The notes beneath the pieces are model-generated. The model did not search any database, was not told where the DNA came from, and saw only the letters and a program-made list of their open reading frames with translations. From positions 247,167 to 311,166 of the forward strand of contig KN832559.1 of NCBI GenBank assembly GCA_000827205.1: a stretch of DNA of 64,000 nucleotides, in the 5' to 3' direction. This document shows, piece after piece, positions 49,342-51,234 of this stretch. How positions within the stretch are numbered: position 1 is the stretch's first letter; every line of letters begins with the position of its first letter. Both the position numbers and the translations under genes were made by a program. This stretch comes from Plicaturopsis crispa FD-325 SS-3 (Eukaryota > Basidiomycota > Agaricomycetes > Amylocorticiales > Amylocorticiaceae).

Positions 49342-51234
49342 CTATATGGGGGTCTCGAAGGATACCTTGACTTGGTTCTGGTATGCGGCGTGGGGTGACA
49401 CAGGTCCTATTCCTGACCGCATCGCGTACGAGCTGCTATTCTGTGATCGCTGGGAGTGTAGACTACGTTTATGCTTGTCTCGTGCATTAAGGCTAGTGAG
49501 AAAAAATGCGAGGTGTGAGCGATTGAACACATCGCTTGAATAGAGAATACTCACGATGACAGAAACGAGATGGTGTATACTAGGGCATGATCCAATGTCA
49601 GTCGTTTTCAGTCAACTTCGCAAGCACGCACGACAAGACTCACATTTCCCGACACAAAAATCGAAGATAGTCCAGTAGAATGTGTTCGGATACGCTTTGA
49701 ACTATATATCTCTTTCAGCGGGGTACCATCGACTTTCGGATAGTGAAGGAGGCGGTACCATAATTAGATCTAACAGCTGGAATACACTGATAGGAATGAG
49801 CCAGTGATAACAACATTGTTAACGATGAAATATACCTGGTAAGCATGCCAGTGCTTACACTATACAGCATGATTTTATTCATGATAGAATCGGTTCTGAG
49901 ATGAGCAGGTGGTCAGATCCTAGGCCCGAGCGTTACAGTCGTGAGACTTACATCCTGTGCCCCGTGCGATTTGTCCAAAGATAGTAGCAAAGACTCCCCG
50001 CGATGAGTAAATCCGTGCTACAGCTGAGGACCACTCCCGCAATTATGACGGGCTTGTTAAAGGTCTAGCGTCAGGGAGGCTAAGTGCCATGCATATGAGT
50101 ACTCACCGACAGGTTTTGCTGGTCTGCGAAGGCCGGCCGCTGCATACTGGCGAGTATGGCACCGTCAACGAAGGTATTAGCAGTTCAGGAAGAGAGCTCA
50201 CGCCTTGACGCCATAGACTGTGCAAAAGTTTAGTTAGTAATCAACTGAGTGGGAGCTATATGCTCTTACTAAGTTGCATAGCTAAAAATGAGTCTCAAGA
50301 GTGAGCCCTAATCCAATTACCAGCGGATGCGACATACCAAAGTGTCCGCTTACAGTACTAATCTGTGGGAATAATGAGAGCCAACTTTAAGGAAGGGTAG
50401 CGAGCGCGTACAATGAGCGAGCATAACGCCCAATTTCTTCTTTTACCCACTGGCTGTATATGAGCAATCTCCAAGCATTCGCTTCAAGTTGGAACACTCA
50501 CATATCCACAAGCGATACACGAAGAACCTATGTAGGTGCATTAGTCGAGCTGCTGGTATCAGGAGCATGTTGCACTCACAACTCGACCCCGACAGCGTTG
50601 ATCCCCTACACATAAATGATGATCAATAGAGAATTTGCGGAAGAAGAGACAAGGAGCGTACCTGGACCACATCCGTAAGCTAGACGGGACCAAAGATCGT
50701 ATTCAGTTACCCTGGTCGTAAACGAATTTACTCACCAAAAACGACCTATATGATTCAGTTGTAACACAAGTGTATGTATACGCACGTGGAGCGACTCACC
50801 AGACACCCGTACTTAGTGCAGAGGGATTGCCGTAGTTGACGATCAAGTAATGATAGAACGAATTTATCAGCAACGCTTGGTGCAATGAATCCAGCCCCCT
50901 GTACGGTCATGTTTCTGAGTAGGGGAGTTCAACTGCTTTATTGAACATTGGCACTGCACCATAACGCTACCGCCTGTAAATTGCTGTTAGGACAAGGAGG
51001 AGAAAGCATCATGGAAGCGAACACACGAACAATCCATAGGAATAATTTCGGATCGCCCACGTTCAGCTCAAAATACGAGTACAGTTGCACGCAGCTCCCT
51101 CCGTACATCCTACCAAGCCTCGACGTTAGGCTAGTCGACATGTTGACGAGATAGCTGAGAACTTACATAGCCGACACTATGACCGCGACAAACCCGACTC
51201 CCCAAGTCGTACCCAAGCCATCCGCGGCGGCCAT
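49342..51234 (-). CDS. DUF6534-type multi-pass membrane protein split into 19 exons
   Basis: Nineteen exons give exactly 900 coding bases and 299 residues, 5' to 3': 51234-51167, 51109-51025, 50973-50960, 50898-50800, 50745-50736, 50679-50662, 50605-50580, 50527-50502, 50449-50412, 50362-50338, 50281-50270, 50217-50202, 50146-50107, 50052-49952, 49895-49836, 49786-49759, 49701-49644, 49579-49555, 49492-49342. Seven exons are under 26 bases (10, 12, 14, 16, 18, 25, 25). All phases agree. The product has the order of the fungal DUF6534 family: YGGSCVQLYSYF, LDSLHQALLINSFYHYLI, VELFFVYRLWI, VVLSCSTDLLIAGSLCYYLW, TDSIMNKIMLYSVSTGMLT, FYWTIFDFCVGKLYTISFLS, then a polar tail. Around seven helices are expected. 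Function unknown; paralogues are numerous in agaricomycetes. Confidence 0.82.

What the first reader, a model, noticed from the sequence alone, without database searches (positions are those of the whole stretch)
49342..51234. A 299-residue membrane protein divided into 19 exons, with seven of 25 bases or fewer
Eighteen introns in 900 coding bases means more intron than exon. Exons of 10, 12, 14, 16 and 18 bases are kept, and every phase agrees to give a clean DUF6534-type product. This is an extreme of intron gain even for basidiomycetes. It raises the question of how exons this small are recognised and whether the intron load is used for regulation.
Basis: partly seen in the sequence, partly recalled or inferred. 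Interest (0 to 1): 0.7.

Follow-up and report, generated by a model that had tools for sequence, protein, structure and literature searches.

The report
Inherited 19-exon membrane-protein gene with microexons
A small fungal membrane-protein gene does appear to be cut into 19 pieces, some only 10-18 bases long, but it inherited this layout from an old ancestor that it shares with many sister genes in the same genome, so it is a well-preserved family member and not a new oddity.

Summary
On the minus strand at 51234..49342 a spliced alignment gives 19 exons, 18 introns of 49-64 nt and a DUF6534 protein (Pfam E 7e-24). Seven exons are 25 nt or shorter (14, 10, 18, 25, 12, 16, 25). One correction: intron 2 more likely starts 6 nt upstream (GTTCGT at 51030), giving 894 nt and 297 aa, not 900 and 299.

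The interpretation "extreme of intron gain" fails. Paralogue L048 (37% identity) has all 18 introns at identical positions and phases; six more have 15-17 (24-32% identity in the three measured); three have more exons (20, 20, 22). Parsimony puts 17 of 18 introns in the ancestor of a 22-member half of the family, one ambiguous. Every target intron recurs exactly in at least six other members. Introner signal: none beyond a few short chance-like matches. No frameshift or stop was needed. In a close trio of paralogues, small exons are under purifying selection.

Short uniform introns fit intron definition, so exon size need not limit splicing; basidiomycete genes with 5-6 bp exons are in print. 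RNA and other species could not be tested; no evidence of regulatory use was found.

The parts
49342..51234 (-). whole coding gene, DUF6534-family membrane protein, 19 exons, 297 aa (refined model)
51167..51234 (-). exon 1, 68 nt (ATG at 51234)
51031..51109 (-). exon 2, 79 nt (first-pass model had 85 nt, to 51025)
   Evidence: same length in L048, L050, L035, L054, L031
50974..51030 (-). intron 2, donor GTTCGT; corrected boundary; if retained the frame stays open (316 aa)
50960..50973 (-). exon 3, 14-nt microexon, same size in L048, L027, L035, L036, L050, L054
50800..50898 (-). exon 4, 99 nt
50736..50745 (-). exon 5, 10-nt microexon, the smallest; same size in L048, L027, L035, L036, L049, L050, L054
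50662..50679 (-). exon 6, 18-nt microexon, phase-neutral
50580..50605 (-). exon 7, 26 nt
50502..50527 (-). exon 8, 26 nt
50412..50449 (-). exon 9, 38 nt (mostly 35 in the dense paralogues)
50338..50362 (-). exon 10, 25 nt
50270..50281 (-). exon 11, 12-nt microexon, phase-neutral
50202..50217 (-). exon 12, 16-nt microexon
50107..50146 (-). exon 13, 40 nt
49952..50052 (-). exon 14, 101 nt
49836..49895 (-). exon 15, 60 nt
49759..49786 (-). exon 16, 28 nt
49644..49701 (-). exon 17, 58 nt
49555..49579 (-). exon 18, 25 nt
49342..49492 (-). exon 19, 151 nt with the stop

Best explanation
This is an intact member of a large DUF6534 membrane-protein family (53 copies modelled in this genome, the target included). 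Its 19-exon layout, microexons included, was largely or wholly present in the common ancestor of a 22-member half of the family and has been kept since, while protein sequences fell to 24-37% identity and intron sequences lost all similarity. The introns are short (49-64 nt). The likely mechanism is splicing by intron definition: each short intron is recognised as a unit across itself, so an exon of 10-18 nt need not be recognised as such. Because two neighbouring complexes hardly fit on a 10-nt exon, the two flanking introns are probably removed one after the other. Shown by computation: the layout, its sharing between paralogues, the absence of stops and frameshifts, and purifying selection on small exons in a close trio of paralogues. 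Inferred: that the mRNA is spliced as modelled, intron definition, and the order of removal. Protein function is unproven; a published machine-learning study proposes DUF6534 proteins as a candidate new class of G-protein-coupled receptors.
For: 19 exons recovered with a profile that excludes the target, score +340 against a best of -68 in 384 controls. Identical intron positions and phases in paralogues: L048 18 of 18 (hypergeometric p about 1e-36), L050 17, L035 17, L027 16, L054 15, L049 15, L036 15. Fitch parsimony places 17 of 18 introns in the 22-member ancestor, one ambiguous. L048 shares 92 of 250 residues, 36.8%. 654 family introns of 40-130 nt: median 57, 5-95% 50-70 nt. In the trio L037/L046/L047, exons of 28 nt or less have dN 0.06-0.15 against dS 0.45-1.87. 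No frameshift and no in-frame stop in the models. Pfam PF20152 E 7.3e-24. Intron definition is predicted to predominate in a basidiomycete and in fungi (PMC2397502, passages); exons of 5-6 bp in basidiomycete genes compared with cDNA (PMC9142197, passages).
Against: No transcript data and no other species. Two of the 18 target donors are weak (introns 3 and 16, log-odds -3.5 and -4.1; 1.7% of 637 other family introns fall below -3), so those introns could be retained at times. In 15 dense members, introns beside exons of 18 nt or less do not have stronger signals; their acceptors are slightly weaker (p 0.008, uncorrected; donors p 0.46), unlike plants. All models come from one script, which allows only GT/GC-AG introns, and its first query was typed from recall. 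dN/dS of the target itself was not computed: its nearest paralogue is too diverged. Target-L048 identity in exons of 28 nt or less (19 of 60) is no higher than elsewhere (69 of 178). In one of the three trio pairs dN/dS is higher in small exons (0.25) than in large ones (0.13).
Confidence: 0.86

Rival explanations
1. The gene is an extreme of recent intron gain, for instance by introner-like elements spreading through it.
For: 18 introns in 894 nt is dense, 20.1 per kb. Target introns resemble each other very slightly more than shuffled ones on average (0.030 against 0.006, sd 0.062).
Against: Each of the 18 introns recurs at the exact position in at least six other members. The best intron pair (0.191) is below the best shuffled pair (0.210); introns at the same position in six paralogues are no more alike than introns at other positions; against the family introns BLAST gave five short matches (12-17 nt, E 0.004-0.07), and within the window each target intron matched only itself. 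A whole-gene DNA search of the genome found only itself, although that search skips very common words.
Confidence: 0.04
2. The gene is a decaying pseudogene whose frame only looks clean because short pieces were picked to fit.
For: Two weak donors (introns 3 and 16); no transcript evidence available.
Against: No stop or frameshift; every internal exon contributes to the score; 0 of 420 local shuffles equal it. All 18 intron positions agree with L048 at 37% identity; decay over that distance would have broken some.
Confidence: 0.05
3. The microexons and introns are kept because they regulate expression, for example by retention or by skipping of the phase-neutral exons 6 (18 nt) and 11 (12 nt).
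For: Retention of 17 of 18 introns would truncate the protein; skipping exon 6 or 11 keeps the frame, as does skipping exon 4 or 15. A regulated microexon is reported in Trichoderma Xlr2 (PMC11121469, part of the abstract and passages).
Against: A gene this split would show much the same retention pattern without regulation. The 12-nt exon is kept at exact length in L048, L027, L035, L036, L049 and L050 and can be read in L031 and L054. No special splice signals were found beside small exons.
Confidence: 0.1

Closest known systems
DUF6534 family (Pfam PF20152), candidate fungal GPCR class (PMC12842992, passages seen)
   Same: Same Pfam domain well over the cut-off (85.1 against 28.2 bits); multi-pass hydrophobic protein.
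   Different: That paper gives no gene structure ('intron' and 'exon' occur 0 times in its main text); receptor function is a machine-learning proposal.
Conserved microexon-tags of plants (PMC8831610, passages seen)
   Same: Microexons of fixed size and phase, kept in homologues and merged into longer exons where introns are lost.
   Different: Here a run of consecutive small exons lies in one short gene, in a fungus, with 50-60 nt introns and no stronger splice signals; no RNA evidence yet.
Basidiomycete bglA beta-glycosidase genes (PMC9142197, passages seen)
   Same: 17-22 exons in three of four species, smallest exons 18, 5 and 6 bp in those three, introns averaging 59-81 bp, borders compared with cDNA.
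   Different: Unrelated protein. The table gives a mean exon of 95 bp for the 22-exon gene, so roughly half the intron density of this gene.
Phanerochaete chrysosporium P450 genes (PMC1184071, passages seen)
   Same: Microexons (2-10 aa), small introns, many paralogues in one white-rot genome.
   Different: There gene clusters of more than three members are said to vary in layout; here a fixed layout is shared by distant paralogues on several contigs.
Introner-like elements (concept recalled, no paper read)
   Same: Would also produce genes saturated with short introns.
   Different: No meaningful similarity between introns was found.

Membership tests
DUF6534 (PF20152) | Profile match over Pfam's curated cut-off | tested here: met
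   85.1 bits against 28.2, E 7.3e-24, residues 168-253
DUF6534 (PF20152) | Seven transmembrane helices, as in the sequences studied in PMC12842992 | tested here: inconclusive
   Kyte-Doolittle peaks: six, about seven clusters at a lower threshold; no topology predictor or structure run
G-protein-coupled receptor | Couples to a G protein | not testable with these tools
   Only a published machine-learning proposal; no match to a solved structure at E <= 1
Conserved microexon array | Same exon size and phase in homologues | tested here: met
   14, 99, 10, 18, 26, 26 and then 25, 12, 16, 40 identical in target, L048, L027 and L035; positions
Conserved microexon array | Microexons present in mature mRNA | not testable with these tools
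   No RNA data; indirect support from purifying selection in exons of 28 nt or less in L037/L046/L047
Introner-like elements | Near-identical sequence among introns | tested here: not met
   Mean pair score 0.030, max 0.191, against shuffled mean 0.006, max 0.210; only short BLAST matches of 12-17 nt
Pseudogene | Broken frame or lost splice sites | tested here: not met
   All 18 introns GT-AG in the model, no stop, no frameshift; two donors are weak

The most novel reading that the evidence does not exclude
The family carries a fungal counterpart of plant microexon-tags: an array of up to eighteen introns with fixed microexon sizes, kept over distances of about two substitutions per residue or more because loss of single introns is selected against or the splicing pattern is itself used. 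It would then be one of the longest conserved microexon arrays known, in a candidate receptor family.
Probability: 0.12. Interest if true: 0.6.

Novelty: new member of a known kind. Interest (0 to 1): 0.3.

Why it matters
It removes a puzzle (a burst of intron gain in one gene) and replaces it with a testable one: why 15 members of a gene family keep 14-21 introns per roughly 250 codons while the others in the same genome have 6-13. The paralogues form a natural series with single introns precisely missing (for example intron 8 in L050, and the intron between the 37- and 16-nt exons in L047), useful for measuring whether microexon-flanking introns cost or aid expression. It also warns that domain searches on unspliced DNA underrate such genes: the target itself reached only E 2.3e-4, below the cut-off, there, against 7e-24 once spliced.

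Tried and rejected
First model with exon 2 = 85 nt (299 aa): replaced by 79 nt after training splice scores, because 79 removes an unmatched two-residue insertion and equals several paralogues. In L054 one search shows a 6-nt exon, but an acceptor 6 nt upstream gives the usual 12 nt (my reading of the sequence printed), so I do not claim a 6-nt exon. In L031 the exon after it came out as 7 nt, while one search had the conserved 16 nt.

Folding the spliced protein: not attempted, because structure prediction takes only proteins read letter for letter from DNA and this one is spliced. Solved structures by sequence: no match at E <= 1. Search for stronger signals beside microexons: none.

Rows dropped: L015 (score 144) and L034 (79) fell under the 150 threshold. 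L028, L045 and a second DUF6534 hit within L014 gave no model of 60 or more and were not followed. L001-L009 were not modelled apart because L010 and later loci, and the window itself, cover the same places. Three short models were left out of the tree. In the parsimony count, introns in the variable loop (profile nt 395-470) were called shared within 9 nt at the same phase; all other positions had to be exact. That tolerance also makes intron 13 look shared with 19 of 28 distant members, probably wrongly, so I do not use it. A few family models have end exons or inner exons of 0-2 nt that are surely artefacts. Papers: only passages were seen of PMC12842992, PMC9602373, PMC8955403, PMC1184071, PMC8831610, PMC9142197, PMC2397502 and PMC11121469; all others only as search listings. 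Of four papers that name DUF6534 I looked at passages of three. The held library lacks most subscription journals.

Full report
What is there. The gene lies on the minus strand, 51234..49342. Read as spliced by an alignment script that knows no intron positions (but allows only GT/GC..AG introns), it falls into 19 exons without stop or frameshift; completed to ATG and stop it gives 299 aa. Retrained splice scores keep all exons but move the donor of intron 2 by 6 nt to GTTCGT at 51030, giving 894 nt and 297 aa. Exon sizes: 68, 79, 14, 99, 10, 18, 26, 26, 38, 25, 12, 16, 40, 101, 60, 28, 58, 25, 151. Introns: 49-64 nt, all GT-AG, 999 nt in total. The product matches Pfam DUF6534 (E 7.3e-24).

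Is it more than chance. A profile built without the target scores it +340; 200 shuffles reach at most -71 and 184 other stretches of the window at most -68. Each of the 17 internal exons is needed (loss of 26 to 157 when masked), and 0 of 420 local shuffles around seven microexons equal the true score, although 30 of them still allowed one exon of the same length. So the presence of some small exon in such a stretch is not rare by itself; its fit to the family is.

Relatives. The genome (33.2 Mb, 49 contigs) has 41 places matching DUF6534 on unspliced DNA, the target among them, and protein searches add more. I modelled 53 members at score 150 or more, target included; this is a lower bound because not all places could be fetched. 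In profile coordinates the 18 target introns are met exactly by L048 18, L050 17, L035 17, L027 16, L054 15, L049 15, L036 15, L046 13, L037 13, L031 13, L047 12, L030 11, L029 11 and L021 10; nine members of an intron-poorer sister group share 4 to 7, five others share 3, and 24 share none exactly: 52 in all. The hypergeometric chance of L048's match is about 1e-36. L035 (20 exons), L049 (20) and L036 (22) exceed the target's exon number. Identity of the target is 36.8% to L048 and 24-32% to L027, L035, L036 and L037.

History. In a maximum-likelihood tree of 50 members, target and L048 pair with full support (100/99) inside a well supported group of 22 (99/96), whose inner order is less sure. 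Parsimony places 17 of 18 introns in the ancestor of these 22 and leaves one (intron 6) ambiguous; introns 2, 6 and 10 also occur in five of the 28 members of the other half and may be older. In seven members of the 22 the introns 4 to 13 are missing as a block, while six of the seven have an intron 2 nt away from the position of intron 7. So the visible recent events in the neighbourhood of the target are losses in others; none of its own introns is private. The root is not known, and counts on an unrooted tree cannot prove gain or loss at the deepest split.

Are the microexons coding. The target is too far from L048 for synonymous rates. In the trio L037, L046 and L047 (70-79% identity; exons of 18, 26, 26, 26, 9 and 28 nt in all three, the 16-nt exon in two) codons in exons of 28 nt or less show dN/dS of 0.149/1.44, 0.114/0.447 and 0.059/1.87; larger exons 0.222/1.71, 0.122/0.925 and 0.174/1.86 (the larger dS values are near saturation). 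The ratios are 0.10, 0.25 and 0.03 against 0.13, 0.13 and 0.09: purifying selection in both classes, lower in small exons for two pairs and higher for one.

How it works. Family introns have a median of 57 nt (5-95%: 50-70, n = 654). Such short uniform introns fit recognition across the intron, which PMC2397502 (passages) infers for fungi including basidiomycetes. In 15 dense members, introns beside exons of 18 nt or less have donors of equal strength (2.96 against 3.11 bits) and slightly weaker acceptors (1.19 against 1.69, p 0.008 without correction; 109 against 154 introns), so nothing special seems to mark them. PMC8831610 (passages) argues for plants that the flanking introns of microexons are removed consecutively; I infer the same here. 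If any one of 17 of the 18 introns stayed in, the protein would be cut short.

Ordinary or not. 52 of 53 family members have at least one internal exon of 18 nt or less, and 126 of 602 internal exons are that small (a few are model artefacts). The same window has stop-to-stop reading frames of 432 to 547 aa (not proven genes), which suggests that the density belongs to this family and not to the whole genome. In print, basidiomycete bglA genes have up to 22 exons and exons of 5-6 bp (PMC9142197, passages), and P. chrysosporium P450 genes have microexons (PMC1184071, passages). I did not find the fixed array in DUF6534 genes in print (searches; listings, and passages of eight papers). The finding is real by sequence evidence, well preserved and inherited; the claim of extreme intron gain is not supported.

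Noticed in passing
L047 (C19:346600-349600) against L037 and L046: Between close paralogues one intron is precisely missing in L047: its 53-nt exon equals the 37 + 16 nt exons of the other two. A clean recent intron loss next to a microexon.
   Followed up: partly
L033, L038, L041, L042, L043, L053, L056: Sister group lacks introns 4-13 of the target layout as a block but has (in six of seven tree members) an intron 2 nt from the position of intron 7; could be loss by recombination with a cDNA plus a shifted or new intron.
   Followed up: no
members such as L010-L025: A separate group of 23 tree members has its own recurrent microexons of 13 and 11 nt (profile positions 20|33 and 77|88) in many members and an intron at 139, one nt from target position 138.
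   Followed up: no
G000:C20:376748-376975 and G000:C15:729623-729955: DUF6534 hits over the cut-off for which the retrained spliced model gave no score of 60 or more; possibly fragments or decayed copies.
   Followed up: no
window 50959-50899 and 49758-49702: Introns 3 and 16 of the target have unusually weak donors (GTGCAG, GTACCG); candidates for intron retention.
   Followed up: partly
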